Positions 21,509-61,861 of a stretch of 64,000 nt of DNA are shown here, in pieces. Origin of the DNA: Calothrix sp. NIES-4105 (GTDB taxonomy: Bacteria > Cyanobacteriota > Cyanobacteriia > Cyanobacteriales > Nostocaceae); the NCBI RefSeq assembly GCF_002368415.1, contig NZ_AP018290.1:9229717-9293716 (forward strand). Direction: 5' to 3'. The notes beneath the pieces are model-generated. The model saw nothing but the letters and a program-made list of their open reading frames with translations, had not been told where the DNA came from and made no database searches. A program made the position numbers and the translations under genes. Every line of letters begins with the position of its first letter. Position 1 is the first letter of the stretch.

Positions 21509-22348
21509 GTAAAATAGTAGAGTTATTCGGACATTATAAAAATGCACAAGTTGATTGGCAAGAAGTTGTTACTCAACAGCAATGTCCGTTTCTATCTAAA
21601 AAATGTATCAAAGTACGTAAGAGCCAACCTGAAATTTCAATAGGAACATGCACTGTTCAATATGGTAAAAATGAGCAACAAGTAATAATTTGCCCGCACA
21701 GGTTTCGCGAACGTAAACAAGTCTTTATAGACTGCATTCATTTACTAACCCAGCACGAACCAGGAAACGAGCTACACTTAATCTCGGAAGTTGCTATTCC
21801 AGGAGGAAGCGTAGATTATTTTTTGGTATCATCTTTAAAGCGTCGCGTGCGAGATTTTGTAGGAATTGAACTACAAACATTAGATACAACAGGGACTGTA
21901 TGGCCTGAAAGACAAAAATTCCTATCCGAGCATAATGTCGAAGTATCAGATAACTTAGTATCGCCAAAAGCTTTCGGTATGAATTGGATTCCGGACCGCG
22001 AAAACTATTCTTGTGCAGTTACATCATAAAATCCAGACATTTGAACATTTAAATAAGCATTTTGTGTTAGTGGTACAAAGCGTGTTCGCCAATTACATGA
22101 AACGTGAGTTCAATTTTTCCCATATTGATAAAGTTAGATTAGGCGACCCTATGCATTTTCATACGTATGAACTAACTTTTAGCAATGGAGAGCTAAGAAT
22201 TGAGCTAGCTGAACGCTTTAGTACGGATACTGATGGTCTTGCGAGGTGCTTAGGGCTTCAGGCTGAAGCAAGAGTTGAGCTAGACGTAATTATTGGACAA
22301 CTAGAAGCTAAAATGTCCGACCGGACATTACTAGGAATTGTTGAGTAG
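21505..22348 (+). pseudogene. NotI-family restriction endonuclease, frameshifted
   Basis: The first frame (from ATG 21505, overlapping the methylase stop) carries Cys27, Cys34, Cys49 and Cys63, which could form the metal-binding cluster of NotI-like enzymes, and a D104...E122-x-Q124 arrangement matching the NotI active site. It ends at 22029 in unrelated residues. The family-like C-terminal part (VQLHHKIQTFEHLNKHF, then LGDPMHFHTYEL) continues to 22348 in another frame. Reading backward, that frame gives KTILVQLHH straight after about 21995, so one extra base near 21986-21998 explains the break. Either the nuclease is dead and the methylase is an orphan, or this is a sequencing error. No slippery heptamer suggests programmed frameshifting. 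Confidence 0.75.
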
Positions 22349-22404
22349 CAGTTATAAATTTAGAATCTTAAGGTAATGCTGGTGCCGACTTACTCCTCGT
22401 ATCA

Positions 22405-22427
22405 AATGTGAACCAATGGTTCACATT
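22405..22427. promoter_or_regulatory. 11+1+11 palindrome upstream of DUF2085 gene
   Basis: The arms AATGTGAACCA and TGGTTCACATT flank one central A. The site is about 100 bp upstream of the DUF2085 start, with an AT-rich stretch between them that is also conserved at the 30686 and 33856 sites. Symmetry and position fit an operator for a dimeric regulator. Confidence 0.5.
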
Positions 22428-22528
22428 GTGCTGGTCAGAAGTTAAAGTAGTTAAAATGTATTATGATTTTGAGTGAAATTAAATATTACAATATCTTTAC
22501 AATCAACTTTAATTTTCGCAAACAGGCT

Positions 22529-23041
22529 ATGCAAGGCGCCATTTTAGATAAACGGTTACGTATCAACTGGGTTAGCTTTATTGGAGACTTTCTACTTTCA
22601 GGGATGGTAGTCGGCCCTCTAGTCGCTCCTTTCCTTGCGGCATCTGGTTTACCGATGTTGCCGATAATTGCCAATATTATCTATTTTATGGGTGATCATG
22701 TGTGTCCACAGCCTGATATGGGAGTTATGCTGGCGCCACCTTTTATTATGGCTGTGTGTATGCGCTGCTATGGTACTGTTACAGGATTACTATTAACGCG
22801 CGTTTTATTTGCTGTTACGGGTGGTAAAGGTTTTTACTGGTTGAGTCAGTATGGTTGGAACGGCGCCGCTATCGCTGCTGTTTTGATGATGGCTTATCCT
22901 TTTGAGTTAGCTGTGCAAGTGTTGGGATGGTACTCGTTTAATAATTATTTTGTGGCGCCGTTTGGTTTGGTTACTGGGTTAGCATGGGGTTTATTTATGA
23001 TGCCTATATTGCATGGAAGCCAAGTGTTGCGGCTAAAATAG
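22529..23041 (+). CDS. DUF2085 family membrane protein
   Basis: I choose ATG 22529 (MQGAILDKRLRINW), not the upstream in-frame start at 22463, because the preceding residues look untranslated. The protein has a hydrophobic segment around GMVVGPLVAPFLAASGLPML, the motif MGDHVCPQPD, and MRCYGTVTGLL, the paired CPQ and CxRCxG motifs that define DUF2085. Three to four further membrane spans follow. The cysteines could bind a metal; the function of the family is not known. Fragments of this gene are found near 24319-24400, 31010-31050 and 34108-34152, so it has been copied and lost several times locally. Confidence 0.8.
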   Translation: MQGAILDKRLRINWVSFIGDFLLSGMVVGPLVAPFLAASGLPMLPIIANIIYFMGDHVCPQPDMGVMLAPPFIMAVCMRCYGTVTGLLLTRVLFAVTGGKGFYWLSQYGWNGAAIAAVLMMAYPFELAVQVLGWYSFNNYFVAPFGLVTGLAWGLFMMPILHGSQVLRLK

Positions 23042-23118
23042 AAGGTAGTTCGCTTTAAATTGAAAACAAGTAATAGCGCGTTACAATGGCTAAAATATAA
23101 CCATGTGCGGATTGGAAA

Positions 23119-23924
23119 ATGGCGGAAGATAAGGGATACACACTAGCTACTGGAGAGTCAGGAGCATACCGTTTACAAATTCGATTGGGCAATCCACCAG
23201 CCGTATACAGAGTTTTTAATGCAACGAGTAGGATTAAAAGAAGGAATGCGTGTAGCTGATATCGGTTGCGGCACAGGAAATGTTTCTTCTATGATGGCTT
23301 CTATTGTTGGACTTAGTGGTTTGGTACATGGTATAGATATGAGTTCCGAACAGCTAGATATCGCGCGCTCCCAAGCTACAGTTCTCAACCTTAAAAATGT
23401 AGAATTTACCTGTGGCAGTGCCTATGATACTAAATTACCTAAAGAATTTTTTGATTTAGTTTACTGCCGCTTTTTATTGATGCATCTCCATCAACCTGTC
23501 CATGCACTTCTGGAAATGCGCGCGCTTCTTAAACCAGGTGGGTTGCTTGTGTGTGAGGAAGCAGATTTTAGTACCGCGTTTTGTCAACCATCTTATAAAG
23601 CCCATGACCGTTGTTATGAAATGCTTATTGCCCTTGCCAAAGAAAGAGGTAGTAAATGAATGCATGGGCACTGTACTCTACCAGATTTTCCAAAATGCTG
23701 GGTTTAGCACTCCAGAAATGTCTTTCGTACAGCCTGTTGTAGTACGTGGAGAAAGTAAGCGTCTTGTAGATTTGTCACTCTTGGAAGCTTTATCGGCTGT
23801 AATTGATGCTAGGCTGGCAACAAAAGAAGAAATGGAGCAAACAACCACTCAATTAAAAGCACTTGCAAGTGACGAAACTACAATATTTGGTATTGCCCGT
23901 GTCACTCAAAGAAAGGGCACGTAA
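23119..23924 (+). pseudogene. Class I SAM-dependent methyltransferase, two frameshifts
   Basis: Three frames together make one methyltransferase. Frame one, from ATG 23119, gives YTLATGESGAYRL. Frame two, entered between about 23175 and 23210, gives the core with motif I VADIGCGTGN, the acidic residue of HGIDMS, and a motif near DLVYCRFLLMHL; it stops at 23659. Frame three, entered near 23645-23655, gives GTVLYQIFQNAGFSTPEM and runs to 23924. The substrate is unknown. Two separate frame changes favour a true pseudogene over a single sequencing error. Confidence 0.75.
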
Positions 23925-24031
23925 ATAGGGGTACTTTGATATGGCGCCACTTTATTCCAAGGTACTGAAAGCGAACGCCCCTTCCACTCGTCATTTTCTA
24001 AAACTTCATACGAATATGGCATATCATTCAT
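23906..24031 (-). CDS. Possible 41-residue protein
   Basis: A short frame starts MNDMPYSYEVLENDEWKG and ends PIYVPFL. Its composition (charged, two tryptophans) looks protein-like, but it overlaps the end of the methyltransferase pseudogene, and I recognise no family. It may be a remnant of a longer gene. Confidence 0.25.
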   Translation of the reverse strand: MNDMPYSYEVLENDEWKGRSLSVPWNKVAPYQSTPIYVPFL

Positions 24032-25009
24032 ATTTTATAATTCTCTAGCAAGTTCGAGGCACCTTTATATATGGTATAGACTTTTACCCGATAATCTGCA
24101 TTTACTATAAATTTACCCAATATATAAAATTCCAGACTGTTCATATGAGATTGGCGCCTGCAATATCCTGTACACGAACCTTACCAACATTAGTCATCAT
24201 CACCCGACGCCCATCCATCATCAGGAAAATCTTTCAATCCTATCATGTCTAAATACTGCCCAGTAGTTACAACTAAGCCTACATGTGTTTTATCAATACG
24301 TAACCTGCTGTAATATTACTGCTGTGGATGCGATGGTAAAGGTTTTTATAGGTAGTTGAGCCAGCTCGCGTTGGAACGGTGCTTTTGCGAAAGCTATTTT
24401 TCTACCTTCAGCTAAACCTAGTAGTCTGTGTCATTAAATTTGGACGGTTGGAAGAATAAACCACATAATCCGGAGGATTTCCCGCAGGGTAGACACAAAG
24501 GACACACTCGTAAGAATTATTAAGAAGTACACCTACCAAAACTATTGACATAGACCACTAGGCGCCTTGCCCAGTAATAATTTCAAAATTCCTTAACAAA
24601 ACTAAACAACGGAAACTTCTGTCCGGTAAGTATTGCAAAAGGTGCGGCGCTGTTACGCAGTATTGGCGCCTCTGCCTCTATTGGACATGCGGAGCAAACG
24701 CACAAAAATTTATTCCCTACTCCCTAAAGTTCCTTCACTGACTAAGCTTTAGCTAAACATGCCTTTATTTACGCCCGTTGGTTTCATGTTGTTTACTGCA
24801 TAAGTTGATTTTCGTGTTTTCTATAACTTTGAGGAAGAGTTCAAACGGAGCAGCTACCTTTGTAAGTGCATAAGTTGATTCTTTCAAATTCTAAGACTAA
24901 TTAGAAAAACGTGGCTTCCCAAACTGAAAGAAGCATAACTTCTAATTACGACAACTAAGTGATAATCAAATCCAAAACTCAACTATTCAAAACACAAAGG
25001 AGTAACAAC
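24032..25009. other. Gene-poor region with a DUF2085 remnant
   Basis: No intact gene is visible. Around 24319-24400 the DNA resembles the DUF2085 gene near 22811-22880 (GGTAAAGGTTTTTA, then TTGAG..AG and GTTGGAACGG) but the frame is interrupted. The last 50 bp before 25010 match the leader that precedes each copy of the small tandem genes, including the strong AAAGGAG ribosome site. Confidence 0.5.
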
Positions 25010-25273
25010 ATGACTTACGCTAACCAAACGAATCAAAACTACTGCGAATGTGAATTTACTGTTCCGATTAAGCTCAATATTCCAATTACGATTAATTCTC
25101 AGGTTCGTATCAATGCTGTACCTGTTACTAAGCAAAAACTACCTATCTTTATTGAGCCAGACTTATTGTTAGAACCAGAAGTAAGAGCAAACGCGCCTGT
25201 TTGTTATCCCCAAGACGGTTGTGACGTTCAACAGCCATATCAACCCAAAGAAATACTACCTGCTTCTAATTAA
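25010..25273 (+). CDS. Tandem small protein, copy 1 of 5 (unknown family)
   Basis: The 87-residue protein starts MTYANQTNQNYCECEF and contains alternating hydrophobic strands (IKLNIPITI, LPIFIEPDLLLEPE) and four cysteines at 12, 14, 65 and 71, in CEC and CYPQDGC settings. There is no signal peptide or membrane span. ATG 25010 follows AAAGGAG at ideal spacing; the upstream in-frame start at 24959 is unlikely. Four near-identical copies follow with the same leader. The paired cysteines could bind a metal or form disulfides. I do not recognise the family. Confidence 0.8.
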   Translation: MTYANQTNQNYCECEFTVPIKLNIPITINSQVRINAVPVTKQKLPIFIEPDLLLEPEVRANAPVCYPQDGCDVQQPYQPKEILPASN

Positions 25274-25336
25274 TTCGCTGATCAGTTTCATCAATAATCC
25301 AAGACTAACATATTCAAAACATAAAGGAGTAACAAC

Positions 25337-25600
25337 ATGACTTACGCTAACCAAACGAATCAAAACTACTGCGAATGTGAATTTACTGTTCCGATTAAAC
25401 TCAATATTCCAATTACGATTAATTCTCAGGTTCGTGTCAATGCAGTACCTGTTACTAAGCAAAAGCTGCCTATCTTTATTGAGCCAGATTTGTTGTTAGA
25501 ACCAGAAGTAAGAGCGAAGGCGCCTGTTTGTTATGCCCAAGAAGGTTGTGACGTTCAACAGCCATATCAACCCAAAGAAATACTACCTGCTTCTAATTAA
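25337..25600 (+). CDS. Tandem small protein, copy 2 of 5
   Basis: It differs from copy 1 only at a few residues: valine for isoleucine in QVRVNA, RAKAP for RANAP and CYAQEGC for CYPQDGC. The ribosome site AAAGGAG and the leader are retained. Its 3' flank (GCTCATCAG) matches that of copy 4, not those of copies 1 and 3. The four cysteines are conserved. Function is unknown. Confidence 0.8.
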   Translation: MTYANQTNQNYCECEFTVPIKLNIPITINSQVRVNAVPVTKQKLPIFIEPDLLLEPEVRAKAPVCYAQEGCDVQQPYQPKEILPASN

Positions 25601-25666
25601 TTTGCTCATCAGTTTCATCAATAATCCAAGACTAACATATTCAAAACACAAAGGAGTAATAAAACC

Positions 25667-25930
25667 ATGACTTACGCTAACCAAACCAATCAAAACTACT
25701 GCGAATGTGAATTTACTGTTCCGATTAAACTCAATATTCCAATTACGATTAATTCTCAGGTTCGTGTCAATGCAGTACCTGTTACTAAGCAAAAGCTGCC
25801 TATCTTTATTCAGCCAGATTTGTTGTTAGAACCAGAAGTAAGAGCGAAGGCGCCTGTTTGTTATCCCCAAGAAGGTTGTGACGTTCAACAGCCATATCAA
25901 CCTAAAGAAATACTACCTGCCTCTAATTAA
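25667..25930 (+). CDS. Tandem small protein, copy 3 of 5
   Basis: It has the copy-2 type sequence but with IQPDLL in place of IEPDLL and CYPQEGC in place of CYAQEGC. Its leader has the longer ATAAAACC spacing before ATG, as in copy 5, while copies 1, 2 and 4 have ACAAC. The four cysteines are conserved. Function is unknown. Confidence 0.8.
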   Translation: MTYANQTNQNYCECEFTVPIKLNIPITINSQVRVNAVPVTKQKLPIFIQPDLLLEPEVRAKAPVCYPQEGCDVQQPYQPKEILPASN

Positions 25931-25993
25931 TTTGCTGATCAGTTTCATCAATAATCCAAGACTAACATATTCAAAACATAAAGGAGTAACAAC

Positions 25994-26257
25994 ATGACTT
26001 ACGCTAACCAAACGAATCAAAACTACTGCGAATGTGAATTTACTGTTCCGATTAAACTCAATATTCCAATTACGATTAATTCTCAGGTTCGTGTCAATGC
26101 AGTACCTGTTACTAAGCAAAAGCTGCCTATCTTTATTCAGCCAGATTTGTTGTTAGAACCAGAAGTAAGAGCGAAGGCGCCTGTTTGTTATGCCCAAGAA
26201 GGTTGTGACGTTCAACAGCCATATCAACCCAAAGAAATACTACCTGCTTCTAATTAA
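25994..26257 (+). CDS. Tandem small protein, copy 4 of 5
   Basis: It combines the IQPDLL of copy 3 with the CYAQEGC of copy 2, and the short leader. This mosaic of variants points to gene conversion or unequal crossing over within the array. The four cysteines are conserved. Function is unknown. Confidence 0.8.
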   Translation: MTYANQTNQNYCECEFTVPIKLNIPITINSQVRVNAVPVTKQKLPIFIQPDLLLEPEVRAKAPVCYAQEGCDVQQPYQPKEILPASN

Positions 26258-26323
26258 TTTGCTCATCAGTTTCATCAATAATCCAAGACTCAACTATTCA
26301 AAACACAAAGGAGTAATAAAACC

Positions 26324-26590
26324 ATGACTTACGCTAACCAAACTAATCAAAACTACTGCGAATGCGAATTTTATATTCCCATTAAGCTTAATATTCCAAT
26401 TACGATTAATTCTCAAGTTCGTATTAATGCTGTACCTGTTACTAAGCAAAAACTGCCTATCTTCATTGAGCCAGACCTATTGTTAGAACCAGAAGTAAGA
26501 GCAAACGCGCCTGTTTGTTATCCCCAAGACGGTTGTGACTATAAGAGTTTACAATATGAAAATGTGATGCAATCAGCAGAGATTGAATAG
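26324..26590 (+). CDS. Tandem small protein, copy 5 of 5, divergent C-terminus
   Basis: The first 72 residues match the family, closest to copy 1 (RANAP, CYPQDGC), with FYIPIKL instead of FTVPIKL. After GCD the tail changes to YKSLQYENVMQSAEIE, so the last copy ends in unrelated sequence. As the terminal unit it may mark the original array boundary. The four cysteines are kept. The stop is followed by an inverted repeat (CACACCATC ... GATGGTGTG, near 26637-26664) that could terminate the array transcript. Confidence 0.8.
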   Translation: MTYANQTNQNYCECEFYIPIKLNIPITINSQVRINAVPVTKQKLPIFIEPDLLLEPEVRANAPVCYPQDGCDYKSLQYENVMQSAEIE

Positions 26591-26636
26591 TTAATTATCT
26601 GTAGTGAGTGTGCAGGATTGTAAGAAGCTCGATATT

Positions 26637-26664
26637 CACACCATCCTGATTTATAGATGGTGTG
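26637..26664 (+). terminator. Putative hairpin terminator after the small-gene array
   Basis: CACACCATC and GATGGTGTG form inverted arms of nine bases around a short AT-rich loop, 46 bp after the stop of copy 5. AATTATTT follows, not a clean T-tract, so termination is plausible but not certain. Confidence 0.5.
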
Positions 26665-26717
26665 AATTATTTCCATGCAAAATACAAAAATTATGTAACC
26701 AAAAGGAATCTTGAGTT

Positions 26718-27263
26718 ATGTCTACTATGCCAGAGTTAAATTATAAATTAGAAAACAATAAAGTTTTAGTATCTTTAACTTTAAAAGTTCCAATCCAGTT
26801 TGAGATAGAAATGCAAACAATGGCAAATAGAGACTATTTTTCAGTCGATGATTCAGCAAAGATAGAAAAAGTAAATATTGAAAACGCCGTTAATGCAGGC
26901 GCAAATTTCATCATAAACGAAATCAATAATTTTAAAATTAATGAACAGCTAGAATTTTTATCAAGTCAAATAGCTACTCAAATATCAACAGATAATTCCA
27001 ATCAATTTGAGTCTGATATCTATGATGTTAAATCGCCATTCAATAATTTTGAACATGAAGAGAAGTTAACAGCATTACCGATAGATAATCGTGAAGAACA
27101 ACGAAATAATCAGCAAATAGAATATTATAATCAAGAAAATTTAACTAATAAAAAACGAAAATTGCGTTTTAGTGAATCATTAAATGATAGTTTGAGCTTG
27201 ATGGTAAATTGTGTGGGAGGTATGCTATTTATCGGTAAAATAGCTAACTATAGCTGGGAATAG
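26718..27263 (+). CDS. Hypothetical 181-residue protein downstream of the array
   Basis: The N-terminal 45 residues (LNYKLENNKVLVSLTLKVPIQFEIEMQ) have alternating hydrophobic strands and a VPI element similar in style to the small array proteins, but clear homology is not shown. The rest is acidic, Asn/Gln-rich and probably disordered, ending with a weakly hydrophobic stretch (SLSLMVNCVGGMLFIGKIA). AAAAGGAA precedes ATG 26718. A degraded copy lies at about 33949-34107, which shows that it belongs to the local pool of duplicated genes. The family is not recognised. Confidence 0.65.
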   Translation: MSTMPELNYKLENNKVLVSLTLKVPIQFEIEMQTMANRDYFSVDDSAKIEKVNIENAVNAGANFIINEINNFKINEQLEFLSSQIATQISTDNSNQFESDIYDVKSPFNNFEHEEKLTALPIDNREEQRNNQQIEYYNQENLTNKKRKLRFSESLNDSLSLMVNCVGGMLFIGKIANYSWE

Positions 27264-27364
27264 AACTCATATATTAATGAAAATGCAACCAGTATTAATA
27301 GTATGATGTCTATATTGCACGGCGCCGCTGATGTTTATCCTCGTGCCAAAAAATTCACAAGCTT

Positions 27365-27634
27365 TTAGTCTAAAGCTAATTTCCCACTAAAACGAGGTAC
27401 CAAAGCTGTGAGAGGTTCATTTGTAATTGGACAATTACCGCGAGTTCCTGCGCCTTTTCTGTCTCTTGGGGCACCGCGATTTTCTGGTTGCCTTTCTAAG
27501 GCTGGCTGAACAAAATGTATTGTTGCAGTATTTGATTGCTGAGATTGTGCTAATAATGGCATACTATTAACTATTAAAAAAGTTGCAGACAATGTTAAAG
27601 CTTTTTGTAGTGAAATAAAGTTAATTTTAGTCAT
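27365..27634 (-). pseudogene. DUF928 family protein, truncated
   Basis: A signal peptide (residues 1-29, hydrophobic ALTLSATFLIVNSMPLLAQS) is followed by the DUF928 opening, RGAPRDRKGAGTRGNCP, then PLTALVP. DUF928 proteins are usually above 200 residues, but this frame stops after 89, just after the first conserved block. The gene lies downstream of a CHAT-CHASE2 gene, the usual cyanobacterial neighbourhood of DUF928. It is probably a decayed gene, although secretion of a short product cannot be excluded. Confidence 0.65.
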
Positions 27635-28181
27635 AATTCAACTCTAAATTATTTATAGTTAAGTACTTTGACATAATTAATTACACAAATTTGTTTCCTG
27701 TTGACTGTCTCCTCTAATGAAATTAGAAATTACGCTTTGACAGGAATTTGCTTATGTAATATTAGCTATATAGCAAGCCTAAATCATTTATAAACAGTAG
27801 ATGATTTTGTAAAGTAGACTGAAGCCCACTACTTCTTATATAGGGATAAGCGAAATTAATTTATGCACTGGCAGCAGATGGAATATGTATGGTATCTCAA
27901 CTCGATACTTTTTAACTTGCCTACAAACGAAAAAATGGTAAGAAAAATTTTTAATTTAGCTATATGTTAAGCAGATATTTTAATAAACTACACTTGATTA
28001 AAGTTAAGTTGTTAACCCAGTAATTATTAAAAATTGTAAATAAGAAAAACATTATGAGTGTCTGCTGTTATCTCAGTGGACACCCTATACTGCTAGAAGC
28101 AAAAAATTTACATAAATTTATAGCATCTATCTGGAATCATATACAGTACCTAAGTTCTAGAAATTAATTTTGTCTCTCTAC
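27635..28181. other. Intergenic region with a one-ended MITE relic
   Basis: At 27662-27686 lies a sequence of the form AGTACTTTGACATAATTAAT, closely matching the terminal repeat of the 90-bp element at 44317-44406 and preceded by TA. No matching right end was found. Around 27765-27800 is a TATAGCAAGCCTAAATCATT motif resembling a dispersed sequence near 59505-59540. No gene is visible. Confidence 0.45.
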
Positions 28182-30506
28182 TTATTTTCTGAAAAATTTT
28201 TCGTATTCTTTTACACTAATTGCCGTAAGGATTAATCCCAGTGCAGAGGGAAGGAATGGCATCCAACCTCCATACAGCAGAAGAATAAAGCAGCAACCGT
28301 AGAGGGTGAGTAATTCAGCACTAATGAAAATAGTTAGTTTTAATTTTGACTGACTGTATACAGTTAATATTCCGGCTAGCAAAGACGAACTGAAAATCCA
28401 CAGCATTTCACCCCATGCAGGTAAAACCCACAGCAACGGTCGATGGTCTAAAACAGCACTCAAAAGTTGACTAACCATATGTGCTTGAAGCACTACCCCA
28501 GGAATTTCTTTTTGAGGGGTAGTTGCCATACTGTAGGGTGTGAGAAAATAATCTTTAACGCTTTGTGAGTCAACGCCAATCAAAACAATCTTATCTTTTA
28601 CCCAGTTGGGGTTGAATTGACTATTCAGGATTTGTGCGACACTGACAACTTTGGCAACCTGCCGCGAAGAGCGATAATTAAGCAGTATTTGGTGTCCGCC
28701 TGCATCAAATTGTTGGTAAGCACCCATTGGGAAATCTATGGGTTTAAAAACGACTTTGCCAAGCTGCAAGTAGCCTAAGTCAGTAATATGGAATTGGATG
28801 CCACTAGCCGCTAGATATTGTCGCGCGACTTGGAAGTTGAAGGAGTAGCGCGACAAGCAATTTGATTCCGGGTCTGGTGTCATAGATAGTAGATGACGAC
28901 GGATTACCAAATCGCCATCAAATACAACATCGCTAAAACCGATACGGTCTGTGCGATTCGTTGCAATTTCCGGTGGTGGTGCAATCCCGGCTGAAAGTTG
29001 TTTGCTATCGCTGGGTTGACAAATAGCAATAAAGTTGTTACTAGTTCGTAAACGAGTTGCTAAATCTGGATATTGAGAATCTACCGGAAAATCTCGATAG
29101 ATATCCAAACCAATAACTCTTGGTTTGTATAGTGACAATTTCTGCAATAATTGTTGTAGTGTACTATCTGATAATGATGATTTTTGTCTTTGTTTTTGAG
29201 CCTGAATATCTGCTTCTGTGATAGTAATCACCAAAAGTCGTTTATCTGCACCTTCCTTTGGTCGCATCCGCATCATTGAGTCGAAAGCTGACAGTTCCCA
29301 TTGTTGCATAAAGCCAAGCGATCGCACTCCCGCAATTAAGCTAGTTACAATAGCACTTATTACCAATGCGGTTTGCAGATGCCGTACTGTCAATTTAGGG
29401 AAATGTTTTGTGTTCGTTTTACCGCATAATTGAAGCCAAGTTATAGTATCTTCCGCTGGGTTTTGGCAAATTACAGGTAGCCAAGAAGCACCGGGAAATC
29501 TATCTTCCAAACCCTGCAATCTTAAACGCGCATAACGCACCGCTAAATAGAAAGATTGACCGCTTGAAAAAGCACCCAGGAAATGTTTCACAAACTCTTG
29601 CGCTACCAAATCCGGGATTTTTTCCCGCATGACAATAATTTGGTTAATTTGCAAATCCGTTAACTGCCGAGCTAATCCCAACCCATCACACGAATTGAAA
29701 ATTGCTATTTTTAATCCGCGTGAAATTGCGTAAGTTAGCGCATTTTTTAACTCGCTTATTGTTAAACTACTAGTTTTATTTATATGTATCTGACCCTTAT
29801 TGTTATGGCTGTGACTGTGACCTGCAAAAAACAGAATATCCCAGCCTTGTTCGTCCCAAAGGCACTTATCTAGCTCCTGACGTGTCGGCTCTACTAAAAA
29901 TACTGTTGATGCGTGGGGTAATTGTTCTAGAATATTTCTATCTTGCTGAATATTAATTCCTTTACTATTACCCAATACTGCTAATATTCTAACTTTATTT
30001 GTTTTCTGTTTGGGTAATGGTGTTACTCGCTCATATTTAGGGATACTTACAGCTACTTCGCATAACTGGTAATTCTCAACAAAATTCCACAAATACCAAG
30101 GTAGCTGTTGCAAGAGGGGATCGCTTGCTTCAATAATAATCTGAAACTCTTCATCTAAAGCTAATTTCTCTCGTAATTTTTGGTCGATTGGGCGAAATAA
30201 ATCGGAGTTTAACCACTCATTGATAGCAAAATATAACTGTTCTTGAACTTCGCTACAATCTACTTCACTAACGTTAGTTAAACCTGTCGAATCTATTTCC
30301 AGGTCGTCACAACGCAGTATAAGTTGTTGGAGCGCATCATATATTAATTGAAAGCGTTTATAGAGTTCAGCGATTTCTGGTGCAGGAGGTAAACTACCTG
30401 TAAATTTTATTGGACGAGAGTTGTTATCCCACAATTGTGCAGTCACCGGGGAAAAGCCATCGTTTAAGTTACCTTTTTCTAAATTGATAACAATTAACTT
30501 ACTCAT
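28182..30506 (-). CDS. CHAT-CHASE2 sensor protein
   Basis: The 774-residue protein has an N-terminal CHAT (caspase-like peptidase) domain up to about residue 355, with catalytic-type His230 in FFAGHSHSH and Cys273 in IFNSCDGLG. After a membrane anchor (about residues 378-396) comes an extracytoplasmic CHASE2 sensory domain, recognised by WELSAFDSMMRMRP, VIGLDIYRDFP and DKIVLIGVDSQSVKDYF. Three closely spaced membrane helices end the protein. CHAT-CHASE2 fusions are typical of cyanobacteria and probably link an external signal to a cytoplasmic peptidase. A DUF928 remnant lies downstream. The substrate is unknown. Confidence 0.9.
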   Translation of the reverse strand: MSKLIVINLEKGNLNDGFSPVTAQLWDNNSRPIKFTGSLPPAPEIAELYKRFQLIYDALQQLILRCDDLEIDSTGLTNVSEVDCSEVQEQLYFAINEWLNSDLFRPIDQKLREKLALDEEFQIIIEASDPLLQQLPWYLWNFVENYQLCEVAVSIPKYERVTPLPKQKTNKVRILAVLGNSKGINIQQDRNILEQLPHASTVFLVEPTRQELDKCLWDEQGWDILFFAGHSHSHNNKGQIHINKTSSLTISELKNALTYAISRGLKIAIFNSCDGLGLARQLTDLQINQIIVMREKIPDLVAQEFVKHFLGAFSSGQSFYLAVRYARLRLQGLEDRFPGASWLPVICQNPAEDTITWLQLCGKTNTKHFPKLTVRHLQTALVISAIVTSLIAGVRSLGFMQQWELSAFDSMMRMRPKEGADKRLLVITITEADIQAQKQRQKSSLSDSTLQQLLQKLSLYKPRVIGLDIYRDFPVDSQYPDLATRLRTSNNFIAICQPSDSKQLSAGIAPPPEIATNRTDRIGFSDVVFDGDLVIRRHLLSMTPDPESNCLSRYSFNFQVARQYLAASGIQFHITDLGYLQLGKVVFKPIDFPMGAYQQFDAGGHQILLNYRSSRQVAKVVSVAQILNSQFNPNWVKDKIVLIGVDSQSVKDYFLTPYSMATTPQKEIPGVVLQAHMVSQLLSAVLDHRPLLWVLPAWGEMLWIFSSSLLAGILTVYSQSKLKLTIFISAELLTLYGCCFILLLYGGWMPFLPSALGLILTAISVKEYEKFFRK

Positions 30507-31178: not shown

Positions 31179-32636
31179 CTACGCACAAGACCAAGCAGGA
31201 ATCACCACATTCCCTTTACCCATAGGCTTCGGTAGCCAAACAACACAACCTGTGGGCAAACCTGCACGCTTTAATACTACAGGCTTTTCAAACTTTGCAG
31301 CTAGGTATTTTAAACCAATGTTCCGAGCTGCGTTCTCACCAGAGCATAATATTTTATTATCCGGTGTTTTAACTAATTTTCCATTACCGGAATCTTTCCA
31401 TAAATAAAGATTCAGTGAGCCAACTTGTGAACCTCTTAAACATTTACCACTCCCGTGCGAATCTGTAATGCTTGTGAATGCTGGGTTGACTCTAACAGTA
31501 TAAATAGAGTGCCTGTTTAAAGCTTTTTGTTCAACTCGTTTTTGTATTTTCTTCGCGACCCAAAACGAACGTTTGGCATTGCTACGACGCGAGTATTTAC
31601 CACGTTGAGCCTTTAAACTTTTGAGGTTTTCAAAAACAATTACATTACAATTGTTGTCATTAGCAATTTCCACAATTGAGTGCGAAATTGTTTCAACGAG
31701 TTCCTTTTCTAAACTTTTGATTCGCTTCCATAGCTTGGCACATAAGTTTTCAGGAGGTAATACACCTAATTCAGTTCTAGTATTAGTTAAACTTTTCGCT
31801 TTGGCAATTCTACCTAGATAACGCTTCCTAAGATGGTGGAGTCGATTGTTTCCTTTTATGCGTAGGTTGGCTAACTCTACAACAACGCTCGTATCTTCGT
31901 ATCCTTCTAATACCTTGCCTACAACTATCGGGTCATCTAAGTTAAGGTCAATGCTTAAAATTCGGAGTTTACCTAATCGCTTTATATGGTCTACTAACTT
32001 TCCCTTTGATGGTGTATTTTTCTGAATTACCCAAACCAGTTTTAATTTACTTTCATCAGAAATTAAAGAGAAAGTTCCTTTGGCGTAATCGGGTGGTAAT
32101 TCTCGACATTTGTAACTAACTTTCTGGAATTGCCATGTTTTCCCTGTCCATAGTTTCACAACTAGGGAGTCTCCAGTATCGTCTTTAAACATACCAGAAT
32201 AAACCTGAATCGGGAAATTAGTCGATTGTGGTAAAACTGGCGGTTTGCCTGCCTTCTTTTTTAACCTTGTACGTTTTTTGAGTGTATGACAAGTCTTTGA
32301 CCTTTCAATTCGCTTCATCCATCGCTCAAAATTCGTGTGCCAAGACTTAACGACACCTGCGGCTTTTTTTATTGCAGCACGTCTCAAGTCTTGAGGAATA
32401 CGAGCAGCATTAAGAATCTGATCGCTTCTTATTAGTTTTTCATAAACATTGTAAAGTGTTTCTGTTGATGTGTCCAGAAATAATTTTAGATTCGATGACA
32501 TTTGAGAAACATAAAACATCACACAGTCGTTAAAAAGTAACTGTGTCAGCTTCACATATTCAGGTGTTGCTGTTTCAACAGTTGCTAGAATTGACTCATT
32601 TATCTGAAAGTGACCTTTTTGTTTCTTCAATGCCAT
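31179..32636 (-). CDS. TnpB/OrfB-like protein with altered RuvC motif III
   Basis: The 485-residue protein aligns by eye with IS200/IS605-type TnpB: RuvC-I LRILSIDLNLDD with Asp230, RuvC-II VIVFENLKSL with Glu336, and RuvC-III SGENAARNIG, where the expected Asp is Gly433 (codon GGT; GAT would restore Asp). The C-terminal zinc ribbon that normally has two CxxC pairs is reduced to Cys399 and Cys431. The N-terminal part is helical and basic. No TnpA gene is nearby. It may be a decayed nuclease or a nuclease-inactive, RNA-guided regulator. Confidence 0.75.
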   Translation of the reverse strand: MALKKQKGHFQINESILATVETATPEYVKLTQLLFNDCVMFYVSQMSSNLKLFLDTSTETLYNVYEKLIRSDQILNAARIPQDLRRAAIKKAAGVVKSWHTNFERWMKRIERSKTCHTLKKRTRLKKKAGKPPVLPQSTNFPIQVYSGMFKDDTGDSLVVKLWTGKTWQFQKVSYKCRELPPDYAKGTFSLISDESKLKLVWVIQKNTPSKGKLVDHIKRLGKLRILSIDLNLDDPIVVGKVLEGYEDTSVVVELANLRIKGNNRLHHLRKRYLGRIAKAKSLTNTRTELGVLPPENLCAKLWKRIKSLEKELVETISHSIVEIANDNNCNVIVFENLKSLKAQRGKYSRRSNAKRSFWVAKKIQKRVEQKALNRHSIYTVRVNPAFTSITDSHGSGKCLRGSQVGSLNLYLWKDSGNGKLVKTPDNKILCSGENAARNIGLKYLAAKFEKPVVLKRAGLPTGCVVWLPKPMGKGNVVIPAWSCA

Positions 32637-33948: not shown

Positions 33949-34152
33949 TATTCTAAATTAGAAAGCAATAAAGTCCTAGAATCTTTAACTGATAACTACG
34001 ATATCCAATCGCCATTAAATAATTTCTCTAATTACGAAGAGAAGTTAAGAGCATTACCAATAGATAATGGTGAACAACGAAATAATCAGCAAATAGAATA
34101 TTATAATAGTGTTGCGGCTAAAATAGAAAGTAGTTCGCTTTAAATTGAAAAG
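33949..34152 (+). pseudogene. Composite remnant: 181-residue-protein gene plus DUF2085 3' end
   Basis: From about 33949 to 34107 the DNA matches two separated parts of the gene at 26718-27263 (AAATTAGAAA.CAATAAAGT and then AGAGAAGTTAA.AGCATTACC). From 34108 to 34152 it matches the last codons and 3' flank of the DUF2085 gene (GTGTTGCGGCTAAAATAGAA, then GTAGTTCGCTTTAAATTGAA). No intact frame remains. Confidence 0.7.
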
Positions 34153-34218
34153 CGACGCCGAATTTGAATTTCAATAAACATGAATTGATTGCAATTTATA
34201 CAACTATTAAACACTATT

Positions 34219-56789: not shown

Positions 56790-58994
56790 TCAACTGTACT
56801 GTCTTGGCAGAAAATCACCCCCAGGTCTAGGGCCTTCAATTTCCCAAGCTAATTCTGGTAAATCTGGAGCAGAACCGAGGAAGAATCCTTGATCAAGTGC
56901 ATACTGGTTGTTTTGAACCTTCATCCGCCAAATTGCATTTTCACCTGTAGTGTAGTTGCGCCATACCAAGTCAGGTATACCATCTCCTGTATAGTCGGCA
57001 CTTCCTTCAAGTACCCAGTTAATGTCTGGTATAGGGTTGAAGTAACCTGTCTGCGCTGGGTTATAATCACCTCCGCTTTGCATTCCCCAATAAGCGTTTT
57101 CGCCTGTTCTGTAGTTGCGCCAAACAATATCTGCTACACCATCTTTGTTGAAGTCAATAACATCTGCTATTTTCCAAGAAGTGTCTGCAACTGGATTAAT
57201 GTAATAGCCATCAGCGGCATTAAAGTAAGGATTGGCGCCAGTTGCATTTGTGTTCAACTTCCAAATCGCATTTAGACCAGTATTGTAATTACGCCAGAGG
57301 ATATCAGGAACATTGTCATTGTTAAAGTCAGCCCAACCTTCGACTTTCCAGTCAGTACTTACTACAGTACTAAGATTTTGAGTTCGGCTTAAGTCACGGG
57401 TAAAGGCGCTTTGTCCACTAATGCTGGCATCAAATTTATATCCCCATATAGCTGTTTGACCAGTTGTGTAATTATGCCAAAGAATCGAAGGACCGCCAGC
57501 ATTATCAAAGTTTGCAACACCTTCCATTCTCCAACTTGTATCACTAATTGGGTCTAGGAACTGAGTTCTAGCTAAATCGAGTTCAACGCCAGTGTTAGCG
57601 TCAAATCTCATAAACCAAACAGCATTTTCACCTGTTCTGTAGTTGCGCCAAAAGATATCAGTAATACCGTTGCCATCCACGTCATACAAACCTTCTATGT
57701 CCCAACCAGATTCCCTCCCGTCCCGAAGATACTTGGTTAGTTTTGGGTCTGTACTCCGGGTAAAGGCGTTTGTTGTATTGGCAGCGTCGTAATTAATACC
57801 CCAAACAGCACTTAAACCACTATTGGTTGGGTCTGTACCGTAATTACGCCAGAGAATTTGTGGTACATTAACGTTATTAAAATTAGGAACATTTGTGGTA
57901 CCAGGATTTGTAACAGTATTGAAGCTGAGTGTTACGCTTGCGCGAGTTATTACAGAAGAATTTGCTGGTAAACCACTGAACTCGACGACGTAACCTTGGG
58001 GTTGGTAATCACTAACTTCTGACTTTGTATAATCTTGCTGGTCAGGAAGATCGTTCCACTTACCTATATTCCCAGCTCCCGAATTTCCAACGATGTGGGC
58101 ATAATCTTCGCCGCTAAGATTATTAATACCGCCAGTCAGATTGTTCGGTTCATTCCTTGCTAAATCCCAGTTGTTGTAATTATTTCCAACTGCTCCAAGT
58201 CCAGGTACATTATTATTGAAGTCGGCGCCTGTACCCCGCCAAAATAATCTTCCAGTACCTCCGTCCTCAGCACCCTCCGGACCAGTAACCCATCTCCACT
58301 CTCCTTCAACTGCTGAGTCACTGGCGCCAATCCAACCGTTACCGTTAATTCGTACTTGAACGTTGTTTTGCTCCGCTTGAGAGGTAATTGTTGCTAAATA
58401 TCCTTGGCGCCCAAATTCGTCTATCTGCGTAGCAGCAGCGTCTCTAGCAGCAGTCCAAGAAATGCCTTGAGCATCTACAAACCTATAACCATTCCCGGTG
58501 TTTGCATCTATCAGCGCATTACCTAGCGAAAACTGAATCGTGCGCGTTGGTCCAGGATTATTGGGGTCAGTATTGGCATATGTAGCTCGACGTAATAAGC
58601 TTTGGTAAATATCCGGACTAACATTAGTCGCTGAATTTGAAGGGTCTAAGGTCAGAACACCTGCTGACTGGTTATAGTTCCAACTAACTCCGTTTTCGCT
58701 ACCACTTGCAACTCCATTAATTCCTAAAATGTCTCTATTGGCATCGAAGTTGTCAATTAGCACCCGCGCGCCACTTAGCGTAGAAATATTTGTGATAGTT
58801 AAATCAGAGTCAATAACTATTGGAGCAGTTCCTGTGTAACTTACATTCCCTGATATTCCTCCTAGTCCAGAACTTACATCTGCAGGGACAGGATTTGATG
58901 AAGCACTTTGGGGTATTAAAGATTCTAGAGGGTCTTTTTGTACGGTTTGAAATTCTGTTGTCAGTGACTGGCTTTGGCTTTGTTCAAAAGACAC
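56790..58994 (-). CDS. VCBS/FG-GAP-like repeat protein with C-type-lectin domain, paralogue 1
   Basis: The 734-residue protein starts at GTG 58994 after AAGGGGG. Residues 1-40 (MSFEQSQSQSLTTEFQ) form a leader shared by the three paralogues. Residues 45-160 are beta-rich and cadherin-like. At about 165-340 lies a C-type-lectin-like domain with EPN at 282-284 and WND at 313-315, the Ca2+/sugar-binding motifs, but without the usual cysteines. From 365 on, about six repeats with WRNYxTGxNAIW and DFNxDxxxD calcium-loop motifs suggest a beta-propeller. It is probably exported by a type I-like route and sugar-binding at the cell surface. Confidence 0.85.
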   Translation of the reverse strand: MSFEQSQSQSLTTEFQTVQKDPLESLIPQSASSNPVPADVSSGLGGISGNVSYTGTAPIVIDSDLTITNISTLSGARVLIDNFDANRDILGINGVASGSENGVSWNYNQSAGVLTLDPSNSATNVSPDIYQSLLRRATYANTDPNNPGPTRTIQFSLGNALIDANTGNGYRFVDAQGISWTAARDAAATQIDEFGRQGYLATITSQAEQNNVQVRINGNGWIGASDSAVEGEWRWVTGPEGAEDGGTGRLFWRGTGADFNNNVPGLGAVGNNYNNWDLARNEPNNLTGGINNLSGEDYAHIVGNSGAGNIGKWNDLPDQQDYTKSEVSDYQPQGYVVEFSGLPANSSVITRASVTLSFNTVTNPGTTNVPNFNNVNVPQILWRNYGTDPTNSGLSAVWGINYDAANTTNAFTRSTDPKLTKYLRDGRESGWDIEGLYDVDGNGITDIFWRNYRTGENAVWFMRFDANTGVELDLARTQFLDPISDTSWRMEGVANFDNAGGPSILWHNYTTGQTAIWGYKFDASISGQSAFTRDLSRTQNLSTVVSTDWKVEGWADFNNDNVPDILWRNYNTGLNAIWKLNTNATGANPYFNAADGYYINPVADTSWKIADVIDFNKDGVADIVWRNYRTGENAYWGMQSGGDYNPAQTGYFNPIPDINWVLEGSADYTGDGIPDLVWRNYTTGENAIWRMKVQNNQYALDQGFFLGSAPDLPELAWEIEGPRPGGDFLPRQYS

Positions 58995-59632: not shown

Positions 59633-61861
59633 TTACGCGAAATCACGTGTGGGGCTAGGACCTTCAATTTCCCAACCTAAATCTTCAACAGAATTGATGA
59701 AGAATCCTGCGTCGAGAACAAGCTTGCTATTTTCAATCTTCATCCGCCAAATTGCATCTTGACCTGTTTCGTAATTGCGCCATAAAAGGTCAGGTATATT
59801 ATCACCCGTAAAGTCGGCGCTTCCTTCAAGTTCCCAGTTAATGTTCAATACTTCGTTGATGTAACCTGTTTGCGCTGGGTTAAGATCACCTCCGCTTTGC
59901 ATTCCCCAAACAGCGTTTTCACCTGTGCTGTAGTTGCGCCAAATAATATCTGCTACACCATCTCTATTGAAGTCGATAACATCTGATATTTCCCAGTCCC
60001 TATCTGCAACTGGGTTAATAAAGTAGCCATCCGCGACATTAAAGTAAGGATTGTTACCACTAACATTTGTATTCAACTTCCAGATTGCATTCTCACCAGT
60101 ATTATAATTACGCCAGAGGATATCAGCAATTTGATCATTGTTAAAGTCAGCCCAACCTTCTATTCTCCAATCGCTACTTACCGCAGGACCAACAAATTTA
60201 GTTCTGTTTGCGTCACGGGTGAGGGCACCTGTTCCACTAACGTTAGCATCAAAGTTATATCCCCATATAGCCGTTTCACCAGATATGCGGTTATGCCAGA
60301 GAATCTCAAATCCGCCAGCATTATCAAAGTTTGTAACACCTTCGATTTCCCAACTTCTATCACTTACCGAGTCGAGGAACTGAGTTCTAGATGTATCTAT
60401 TTCAACGCCTGTATTTTGGTTAAACGTCATGAACCAAACAGCATTTTCACCTGTTGAGTAGTTACGCCAAAAGATATCAGTAATACCGTTGCTATCAATG
60501 TCAAACAAACCTTCGATTTCCCAATTTAGGTCTTTTTGCTCTTGAATATACTTAGTTAGTCTTGAGTCTGTGTTCACCGTAAAGGCATTAGTTGCATTTG
60601 TCGCATCATAATTGAGAGTCCAAACAGCATTCAAACCGCTTTGAGGTGAATCTTCACCATAATTACGCCACAGAAGTTCTGGTACATTAAAGCTGCCATC
60701 GCCAGCATTCGGATTAAAATTCGGAACTGTTGTAGTAGTACCAACTGCAGCAGTACCACCAGTACCACCGCCACCAGTACCACCGCCACCAGTACCACCA
60801 AAGCTCAGTGTTACCGAAGCGGTAATTGTTGGGGAAGTATCTCCTGATAAACCACCATACTCAACGATGAAACCTTGAGGTTGGTAAGCGCCAATATCAC
60901 CTGCATAATTTTGCTGGTCAGGAAGGTCGTTCCACTTACCTATATTCCCTGCACCTGCATTTCCTACGATGTGAGCATAATCTTCGCCATTAGGAATATT
61001 TGCGTTGGTAGAGTTGTTAGGTTCATTATTTTGTAAATCCCAGTTATTGTAAAAACCTCCAACTGGCCCAGCACCGTTGACATTATTGTTAAAATCGGCG
61101 CCTGTTCTGAGCCAATATAGTCTTCCAGTACCTCCATCTTCTGTACCTTCAGGCCCACTAACCCATCTCCACTCTCCTTCAACTGCTGAGTCACTGGCGC
61201 CTATCCAACCATTACCGCTAACTCGGCTTTGAACGAAATCTTGTTCAGTTTGTGAGGTAAGTGTTACTAAATACCCTTGGCGCCCTAAATAGTTACGACT
61301 GTTTGTCCTGGTTGTAGCGTCAGTCCAAGAAATACCAACATTATCTCCACCAGTAACAAACTCATAAAAATGCCCATTTTCTGGATTTGCCAGCAGATTC
61401 CCTAGCGAAAATTGAATCGTGCGCGCGGCGCCAGGATTACTAGCATCAGTATTACTATATGTTGCTCGACGTAATAAACCTTGGTAAACATCTGAACTAA
61501 CAGCACTAGCTGAATCTAAAGTTAGAACACCCCTTGTGGAGTCATAATTCCAACTAACTCCGTTTTCGCTACCACTTGCAATTCCATTGATACCTAAAAT
61601 GTCTTTATTGGCATCAAAGTTGCCAATTAGTACCCGCGCGCCATTGAGTGTAGGAACATTCGTGATAGTTAAATCAGAGTCAATAACTATTGGAGTTGTA
61701 CCTGTGTAACTAATATTCCCTGATACTCCTCCTAAACCTCCACTTGCATCAGCAGGGGCAGGAATTGATGAAGCACTTAAGGCTATCGGAGATAGAGGGT
61801 CTTTTTGTACGGTTTGAAATTCTGTTGTCAGTGACTGGCTTTGGCTTTGTTCAAAAGACAC
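59633..61861 (-). CDS. VCBS/FG-GAP-like repeat protein with C-type-lectin domain, paralogue 2
   Basis: The 742-residue protein starts at GTG 61861 after AAGGGGA. It has the same order as paralogue 1: shared leader, cadherin-like domain, lectin-like domain with EPNN and WND motifs, then a glycine-rich linker (GGTGGGGTGGGGTGG type) absent from the other two, and six WRNY repeats with DxNxDxxxD loops. It is closest to paralogue 3 in the repeat half and to paralogue 1 in the lectin half, so the trio looks mosaic. Probable cell-surface or sheath sugar-binding role. Confidence 0.85.
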   Translation of the reverse strand: MSFEQSQSQSLTTEFQTVQKDPLSPIALSASSIPAPADASGGLGGVSGNISYTGTTPIVIDSDLTITNVPTLNGARVLIGNFDANKDILGINGIASGSENGVSWNYDSTRGVLTLDSASAVSSDVYQGLLRRATYSNTDASNPGAARTIQFSLGNLLANPENGHFYEFVTGGDNVGISWTDATTRTNSRNYLGRQGYLVTLTSQTEQDFVQSRVSGNGWIGASDSAVEGEWRWVSGPEGTEDGGTGRLYWLRTGADFNNNVNGAGPVGGFYNNWDLQNNEPNNSTNANIPNGEDYAHIVGNAGAGNIGKWNDLPDQQNYAGDIGAYQPQGFIVEYGGLSGDTSPTITASVTLSFGGTGGGGTGGGGTGGTAAVGTTTTVPNFNPNAGDGSFNVPELLWRNYGEDSPQSGLNAVWTLNYDATNATNAFTVNTDSRLTKYIQEQKDLNWEIEGLFDIDSNGITDIFWRNYSTGENAVWFMTFNQNTGVEIDTSRTQFLDSVSDRSWEIEGVTNFDNAGGFEILWHNRISGETAIWGYNFDANVSGTGALTRDANRTKFVGPAVSSDWRIEGWADFNNDQIADILWRNYNTGENAIWKLNTNVSGNNPYFNVADGYFINPVADRDWEISDVIDFNRDGVADIIWRNYSTGENAVWGMQSGGDLNPAQTGYINEVLNINWELEGSADFTGDNIPDLLWRNYETGQDAIWRMKIENSKLVLDAGFFINSVEDLGWEIEGPSPTRDFA

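What the first reader, a model, noticed from the sequence alone, without database searches (positions are those of the whole stretch)
24976..26590. Five-copy tandem array of an unknown four-cysteine small protein
Five 87- to 88-residue genes, each with its own strong ribosome site, are almost identical in protein and DNA. Four cysteines are invariant. Such amplification suggests a need for high dose, or a structural, metal-binding or secreted role. I know no described family with this sequence.
Basis: seen in the sequence. Interest (0 to 1): 0.7.

Follow-up and report, generated by a model that had tools for sequence, protein, structure and literature searches.

The report
Cyanobacterial tandem small-protein array cassette
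A large filamentous cyanobacterium carries five side-by-side copies of a tiny uncharacterised protein gene, and some of its relatives carry the same kind of array, usually with a partner gene next to it, which looks like an undescribed protein-assembly cassette whose function is still unproven.

Summary
Five co-oriented genes (25010-26590), each with AAAGGAGTAA before its ATG, encode 87, 87, 87, 87 and 88 residues. Copies 1-4 are near-identical; copy 5 differs, chiefly in its tail. No Pfam, NCBIfam, PHROGs or PDB-sequence match. The array belongs to a patchy family of heterocystous cyanobacteria: 38 of 217 genomes of the window's family match at E<=0.1. In all 32 multi-copy loci tabulated the copies are co-oriented, and 28 of 32 have a companion gene directly downstream (here 26718-27263; at least one organism counted twice). 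Only two cysteines are invariant in the family, not four. dN/dS between species at matching positions is 0.10-0.19 in 11 of 13 calculable pairs. The companion ends in a module that also occurs as a separate small-protein family. A promoter-like element, TGCATAAGTTRATT plus a TATA-like box, precedes 11 of 23 arrays and a small set of other genes; it is not the hormogonium J-box. In two genera a sigma-like gene follows the companion. Best reading: a dosage-amplified, self-associating strand protein tethered to a membrane by its companion under an alternative sigma factor. Assembly, location and signal are inferred; AlphaFold gave no usable model.

The parts
24797..24827 (+). promoter-like element 1: TGCATAAGTTGATT (24797-24810) with TATAAC at 24822-24827
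   Evidence: Sequence; position; conserved upstream of 11 of 23 arrays at <=2 mismatches, shuffles mean 0.24, maximum 3 in 300
24867..24880 (+). second copy of the element TGCATAAGTTGATT, 70 bp downstream; its TATA-like box is poor
   Evidence: doubled also in Rivularia MS3 and Iningainema
25010..25273 (+). array copy 1, 87 aa; shares protein features with copy 5 in its body and with copies 2-4 in its tail
25337..25600 (+). array copy 2, 87 aa
25667..25930 (+). array copy 3, 87 aa
25994..26257 (+). array copy 4, 87 aa (no synonymous difference from copy 2)
26324..26590 (+). array copy 5, 88 aa; distinct tail ..VMQSAEIE, like the last copy in Calothrix MO_192, Rivularia MS3 and Tolypothrix
26718..27263 (+). 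companion gene, 181 aa: N-terminal strand-like stretch, variable linker, C-terminal hydrophobic module ending ..GKIANYSWE

Best explanation
A two-gene assembly cassette. Shown: a multi-copy array of a short, strongly constrained protein, followed by a single companion whose C-terminal ~35 residues are a separate hydrophobic module, with a conserved promoter-like element in front of many arrays. Inferred: an alternative (ECF-like) sigma factor fires the element; several copies supply dose; the small proteins associate through their two amphipathic strand segments (CxFTVPIKLNIPI and KLPIFIEPDLLLEPEV), possibly locked by the two invariant cysteines; the last copy and the companion are minor subunits, and the companion tethers the assembly to a membrane from the cytoplasmic side. 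It thus works like other major-subunit-plus-anchored-minor-subunit systems, without belonging to any tested family.
For: 32 of 32 multi-copy loci co-oriented, 28 of 32 with a same-strand companion directly downstream. dN/dS 0.10-0.19 between species in 11 of 13 pairs; in the two pairs tested at all three positions (Mastigocoleus MO/BC, Hassallia/Tolypothrix) same-position dS between species (0.24-0.48) is mostly below within-array dS (0.32-1.28). Position-specific tails of the last copy. Strand-like hydrophobic alternation in columns 16-28 (permutation p 0.0001) and 44-58 (0.004), segments chosen after viewing; unbiased best 13-residue window p 0.0005. Companion C-terminal module homologous to a stand-alone family: hhalign probability 96.5, E 7e-10. 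Same logic in another cyanobacterial family: small CVFQVPIKLEVPIVL proteins (two copies in L152 and L153, one in L145) beside a 245-246-aa protein carrying CEFEIPINFLVP at its N-terminus (A4 versus these small proteins probability 95.4). Promoter element.
Against: AlphaFold gave no structure: small protein pLDDT 59, pTM 0.24, no secondary structure; companion pLDDT 44. Hydropathy of the companion's C-terminal segment is borderline (best 19-residue mean 1.2-1.7; in 13 of 14 at the C-terminus, in one at the N-terminus). Homology of the companion's N-terminus to the small protein is weak (probability 24.6, E 8e-4). Companion absent beside the array in L071/L117 (one organism) and on the opposite strand in L061 and L120; companion without array in L194 and L195. 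12 of 23 upstream regions lack the element at <=2 mismatches. No expression or localisation data.
Confidence: 0.32

Rival explanations
1. Output of a conflict or cell-death response. A CHAT/caspase-type sensor releases an ECF-like sigma factor, which switches on the array; the small amphipathic proteins act on the cell's own membranes or septa and the companion guides or restrains them.
For: Sigma-like gene directly after the companion in Rivularia MS3 (L072) and G561 (one genus, g45; L130 looks like the same sequence as L072) and in G461, followed in Rivularia by DUF1822 (E 5.5e-64). CHAT-CHASE2 gene 0.9 kb from the companion in the window (CHASE2 1e-66, CHAT 5e-12). Caspase, CHAT, sigma-like or DUF1822 genes within 6 kb in 6 of 23 array loci versus 0 of 43 control loci (159 kb). 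Kaur et al. 2021 describe caspase/CHASE2 proteins with an ECF sigma factor and DUF1822 (passages). Element also precedes a caspase gene and a sigma-like gene.
Against: The queries came partly from these same flanks, so the contrast is biased. 17 of 23 loci have no such gene in the stretch held. G461 has the companion but no array. No element was seen within 250 bp upstream of the adjacent sigma-like genes. Sigma assignment is sub-threshold. No toxicity data.
Confidence: 0.17
2. Precursor peptides: the conserved N-terminal stretch is a leader and the C-terminal tails are matured or released.
For: Conserved front, variable tails. The same element precedes three short Cys-rich-tailed peptides in G049, G056 and G005.
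Against: No modification or export enzyme seen by eye next to the array; neighbours are not shared between lineages beyond close relatives. The second half, up to C65, is also conserved. The three peptides matched nothing in NCBIfam and the two scanned in Pfam matched nothing.
Confidence: 0.14
3. Metal-binding or redox protein of the metallothionein type, amplified for capacity.
For: Four cysteines per 87 residues in this array; multi-copy.
Against: Only two cysteines are invariant in 50 rows; the third and fourth are lineage-specific; no Pfam match.
Confidence: 0.07
4. Recently amplified gene with no dose requirement; copy number drifts.
For: Copies 2 and 4 have no synonymous difference; unequal crossing-over signs (leaders of units 2 and 4, 3 and 5 alike). 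Array lost with companion kept in G481 (L195); truncated single copy in L090.
Against: At least two copies in 32 of 36 loci that hold any copy, and matching positions preserved between sister species under purifying selection.
Confidence: 0.1

Closest known systems
EACC2-caspase / CHASE2 / ECF sigma factor / DUF1822 neighbourhoods (Kaur et al. 2021, PMC8195603; passages seen)
   Same: DUF1822 and a sigma-like gene follow the companion in Rivularia MS3; a CHAT-CHASE2 gene lies near the window array.
   Different: The array and companion are not mentioned in the passages seen; no shared neighbour in 17 of 23 loci held.
Gas vesicle protein GvpA (recalled: small, often several tandem copies in cyanobacteria)
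   Same: Small protein, tandem copies, likely assembly.
   Different: No Pfam match; no gvp-like partner genes noticed.
Chaplins of Streptomyces and CsgA/CsgB curli (recalled)
   Same: Small strand-rich proteins, two cysteines (chaplins), major plus anchored minor subunit (curli).
   Different: Those are exported with signal peptides; here none is apparent, and no sequence match was found.
Stand-alone NYSWE small proteins (alignment A9, this work)
   Same: Homologous to the companion's C-terminal module.
   Different: Not tandem, lack the strand motif, variable polar tail after the module.

Membership tests
Any Pfam / NCBIfam / PHROGs family | Profile match of the small protein | tested here: not met
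   No family for the window copies; PHROGs none of 26, Pfam only a frog peptide at E 0.26 in 2 of 26
Any protein with a solved structure | Sequence-profile match in PDB | tested here: not met
   No chain at E<=10
Hormogonium SigJ regulon | J-box GGGAATACT at the -10 region | tested here: not met
   The conserved element is TGCATAAGTTRATT with a TATA-like box; J-box as given in PMC6495340 and PMC11407516 (passages). I compared consensus sequences and read the upstream regions by eye; no J-box scan was run
Caspase/CHASE2 - ECF sigma - DUF1822 systems | Caspase or CHAT protein with CHASE2 nearby | tested here: met
   Window 28182-30506: CHASE2 and CHAT; L071 likewise
Caspase/CHASE2 - ECF sigma - DUF1822 systems | ECF sigma factor and DUF1822 next to it | tested here: inconclusive
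   DUF1822 confirmed in Rivularia; sigma assignment sub-threshold: TIGR02937 E 0.0085, Sigma70_r4 E 0.078, none for L072. Not found beside the window array
Metallothionein-like proteins | Conserved multi-cysteine metal site | tested here: not met
   Two invariant cysteines in 50 rows
RiPP precursor peptides | Adjacent modification enzyme and leader/core division | tested here: inconclusive
   No shared neighbour enzyme; conservation extends through both halves; maturation not testable
Self-assembling multi-copy structural proteins | Polymerisation and localisation | not testable with these tools
   AlphaFold models too poor to use

The most novel reading that the evidence does not exclude
The array is the dose-amplified effector of a caspase/CHAT-sensed, ECF-sigma-driven response of multicellular cyanobacteria: cytoplasmic strand proteins polymerise and are nailed to a membrane or septum by the companion, sealing, coating or killing cells of the filament. 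The CxFxVPIxLxVPI segment would be a portable assembly tag, reused in another cyanobacterial family on a 245-residue protein whose relatives instead carry signal-peptide-like fronts.
Probability: 0.13. Interest if true: 0.85.

Novelty: new variant of a known kind. Interest (0 to 1): 0.55.

Why it matters
It defines an undescribed cyanobacterial small-protein family with an unusually regular layout (n body copies, one distinct last copy, one companion), a second undescribed small family that shares the companion's end, and a promoter-like element that marks a small gene set including peroxidases, a caspase, a beta/gamma-crystallin and a sigma-like gene. If the element is fired by the sigma-like protein, it makes the outputs of a predicted cell-death or conflict system directly testable.

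Tried and rejected
Phage or plasmid origin: no match in phages, plasmids or viral contigs. Structured RNA: none at Rfam gathering thresholds in 22000-30000. Simple sigma-70 promoters and terminators: no more than shuffles give. Known J-box promoter: not matched. Conserved neighbours: none across lineages except the loosely linked caspase/CHAT group. Literature: peptide strings 0 papers; DNA strings 42 papers, 20 listed, none of those 20 on cyanobacteria by title; keyword search 0 papers.

Full report
WHAT IS THERE. The window is part of an 11.06-Mb contig of a 12.04-Mb genome. Five ORFs of 87, 87, 87, 87 and 88 aa run from 25010 to 26590 on the + strand, period 327 bp, 94% matches, each with AAAGGAGTAA upstream. 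In the own genome no sixth copy was found: the two further hits have E above 2. DNA comparison shows that units 2 and 4, and the leaders of units 3 and 5, resemble each other, as unequal crossing-over would leave. Copies 1-4 differ little (dN 0.005-0.025); copy 5 is more distant (dN 0.13-0.16).

THE FAMILY. No Pfam or NCBIfam family matches the window copies; over 26 members PHROGs gives none and Pfam only a frog peptide at E 0.26 in 2 members; no PDB chain at E<=10. In 100 relatives, 38 have some match at E<=1, but strong ones (E<1e-10) lie in 8 besides the own genome, each with at least two copies. A profile of 50 proteins finds 38 of 217 genomes of the same family at E<=0.1 (one of these, G260, is a stop-riddled weak hit). 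Across the phylum 4 of 386 genomes match at E<=0.01. Named members from one scan (20 loci) are Calothrix, Rivularia, Hassallia, Tolypothrix, Mastigocoleus, Brasilonema, Scytonema, Iningainema, Scytonematopsis, a Nostoc and one unnamed cyanobacterium bin. Phages, plasmids and viral contigs give none.

Two size classes exist. The long type (about 70-89 aa) is that of the window; a short type (58-62 aa in most) lacks about 26 middle residues (A4 versus A3: probability 98.9) and forms arrays in G005 and G006 (5 copies each) and G025 (4). G005 and G006 are of the window's own genus, so the window's long type is closer to other genera than to these congeners: 72% identity to G015. Of the six congeners, G002 and G003 have only single weak remnants, and G001 and G004 have no match to the long profile.

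In the 50-row alignment C14, F16, P19, L22, P25 and C65 are invariant. Hydrophobic and polar residues alternate in columns 16-28 and 44-58 (permutation p 0.0001 and 0.004, segments chosen after viewing; best window anywhere p 0.0005). That is what an amphipathic strand would show; AlphaFold, however, returned no secondary structure at pLDDT 59.

SELECTION AND ORDER. Between species, same-position copies give dN/dS 0.10-0.19 in 11 of 13 pairs; two pairs were saturated. In Mastigocoleus and in Hassallia/Tolypothrix the three positions are each closer to the same position in the sister species than, in most comparisons, to their array neighbours. The last copy has its own tail..VMQSAEIE in the window..LMQSVEIE in Calothrix MO_192..MMQSVEI in Rivularia MS3..LQSAEMS in Tolypothrix, where earlier copies with a long tail end ..LPASN..LPANN or ..LPSA.

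THE COMPANION. I tabulated 39 loci with profiles: 32 hold two or more copies, always on one strand; 28 of these 32 have the companion directly downstream on the same strand (in L088 it is split into two ORFs). The four without are L071 and L117 (the same sequence from two sources, no companion found), L060 (contig ends) and L068 (companion cut by the contig end; found by the other profile). Of four loci with a single copy, L087 has the companion downstream, L061 and L120 have it on the opposite strand, and L090 has none. Three loci have a companion without array: L195; L194, beside an IS66 transposase; and L134, where a truncated small-protein start runs into the companion's rest in one ORF. 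Another full-genome scan with the companion profile gave 52 of 208 genomes at E<=0.01, many through the C-terminal part alone.

The companion's C-terminal ~35 residues (..NDGxxLxxNxxGTxLFLGKxANYSWE) are homologous to stand-alone small proteins MINRxxDxIFxDSFAFxINxTxGTLLxTKICNYSWEGK (A9; probability 96.5, E 7e-10). A9 matches 73 of 211 genomes at E<=0.001; by coordinates 13 of these 73 are matched only at their companion, the window's genome among them, so 60 have a separate place. Neither Pfam nor NCBIfam names five A9 members tested (best NCBIfam E 0.17). The N-terminus (..SLxLKVPIxIExE..) resembles the small protein's first strand only weakly (probability 24.6, E 8e-4; A1 profile E 6e-4 to 2e-3 in the three short-type companions).

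A PARALLEL IN ANOTHER FAMILY. In genus g105 of family f15 (four genomes) small proteins MPYKYxxPCVFQVPIKLEVPIVLDLAVAAK.. occur (A4 versus A8 probability 95.4 over 24 columns). In L152 and L153 two copies, and in L145 one, precede a 245-246-aa protein with CEFEIPINFLVPxSFKP at its N-terminus; L151 shows the large protein without small copies in the stretch held, and L144 two small ones up to the contig end. Relatives of that protein's domain in L154, L155, L157 and L158 carry signal-peptide-like fronts and VPEP-type ends, read by eye. So the strand segment looks like a portable module on an otherwise exported-type domain.

THE PROMOTER-LIKE ELEMENT. Aligning four upstream regions showed TGCATAAGTTGATT, twice in the window. 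At <=2 mismatches to TGCATAAGTTRATT it is upstream of 11 of 23 arrays; shuffles give 0.24 on average and 3 at most in 300; the reversed and complemented forms give 0. Excluding the four regions from which it was read, it is 8 of 19, some from sister species. With the TATA-like box (GCATAAGTYRAWT-N8-14-TAYNA) there are 7 sites in the own genome against 0 reversed and 25 in eight relatives against 0; 4 of these 25 precede arrays (G005, G006, G015, G566), so in the other four genomes the array is not among the exact matches. Genes after the other sites include a D-Ala-D-Ala carboxypeptidase, a beta/gamma crystallin, a caspase, a DyP peroxidase, an animal-type haem peroxidase, a baseplate-J-like protein, an anthranilate synthase, cupin-like proteins (sub-threshold), three Cys-tailed peptides without a family, and others not named. 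In L203 and L208 the site overlaps the longest ORF's start, so the gene start or the site is uncertain. The element is not the J-box (passages).

THE SIGMA-LIKE NEIGHBOUR. A 476-488-aa protein, weakly sigma-like (TIGR02937 E 0.0085 for L223, below its cut-off; Sigma70_r4 E 0.078 for L194, none for L072; none for L223 at E<=0.1; no PDB match), follows the companion in Rivularia MS3 (L072), G561 (L132) and G461 (L194); L130 (G564) carries the same sequence as L072. In Mastigocoleus (L223) its homologue has the element in front. But no element was seen within 250 bp before the adjacent sigma-like genes. In Rivularia DUF1822 comes next (E 5.5e-64). Kaur et al. (PMC8195603, passages) describe caspase/CHASE2 proteins with an ECF sigma factor and DUF1822. 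The window has a CHAT-CHASE2 gene at 28182-30506. Within 6 kb, 6 of 23 array loci have a caspase, CHAT, sigma-like or DUF1822 gene, against 0 of 43 control loci totalling 159 kb; since queries came partly from those flanks, this is suggestive only.

READING. I take the cassette to be a dosage-amplified, self-associating protein with a membrane-tethering companion, under an alternative sigma factor. The cassette, the constraint, the module and the element are shown by sequence; polymerisation, location and control are inferred. The bolder reading makes it an output of a caspase/ECF-sigma response.

Noticed in passing
window 33955-34185 (+): Decayed second companion: about 73% identity over 41 residues plus a short N-terminal piece, with stops; suggests an earlier duplicate of the cassette.
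   Followed up: partly
window 28182-30506 (-): CHAT-CHASE2 protein, 774 aa, 0.9 kb downstream of the companion.
   Followed up: partly
L182, L183, L184, L186, L187, L188, L190, L191, L192, L193, L196: Stand-alone small protein family with the conserved module DSFAFxINxTxGTLLxTKICNYSWE, undescribed in Pfam and NCBIfam as tested on five members.
   Followed up: partly
L215:1661-1930, L216:967-1248, L227:1595-1858: Short peptides with conserved front and Cys-rich tail (e.g. ..NCDWCACWGCCS) behind the same promoter-like element; look like peptide natural-product precursors; no family match.
   Followed up: partly
L208:1210-1470 (-), own genome C1: Beta/gamma crystallin gene behind the same element (Pfam E 3e-17).
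   Followed up: no
L152, L153, L145, L144 (family f15, genus g105): Tandem small proteins with the same strand motif, beside a 245-246-aa protein with the motif at its N-terminus.
   Followed up: partly
window 56790-58994, 59633-61861, 62401-63645 (-): Three successive large paralogues beginning MSFEQSQSQSLTTEFQ or MPLEQSQSLTTEFQ, all from GTG starts, with repeated ILWRNYxTGENAVW-type motifs.
   Followed up: no
window 31179-32636 (-): TnpB-like transposon protein (recalled resemblance, not searched) between the CHAT-CHASE2 gene and the decayed companion.
   Followed up: no
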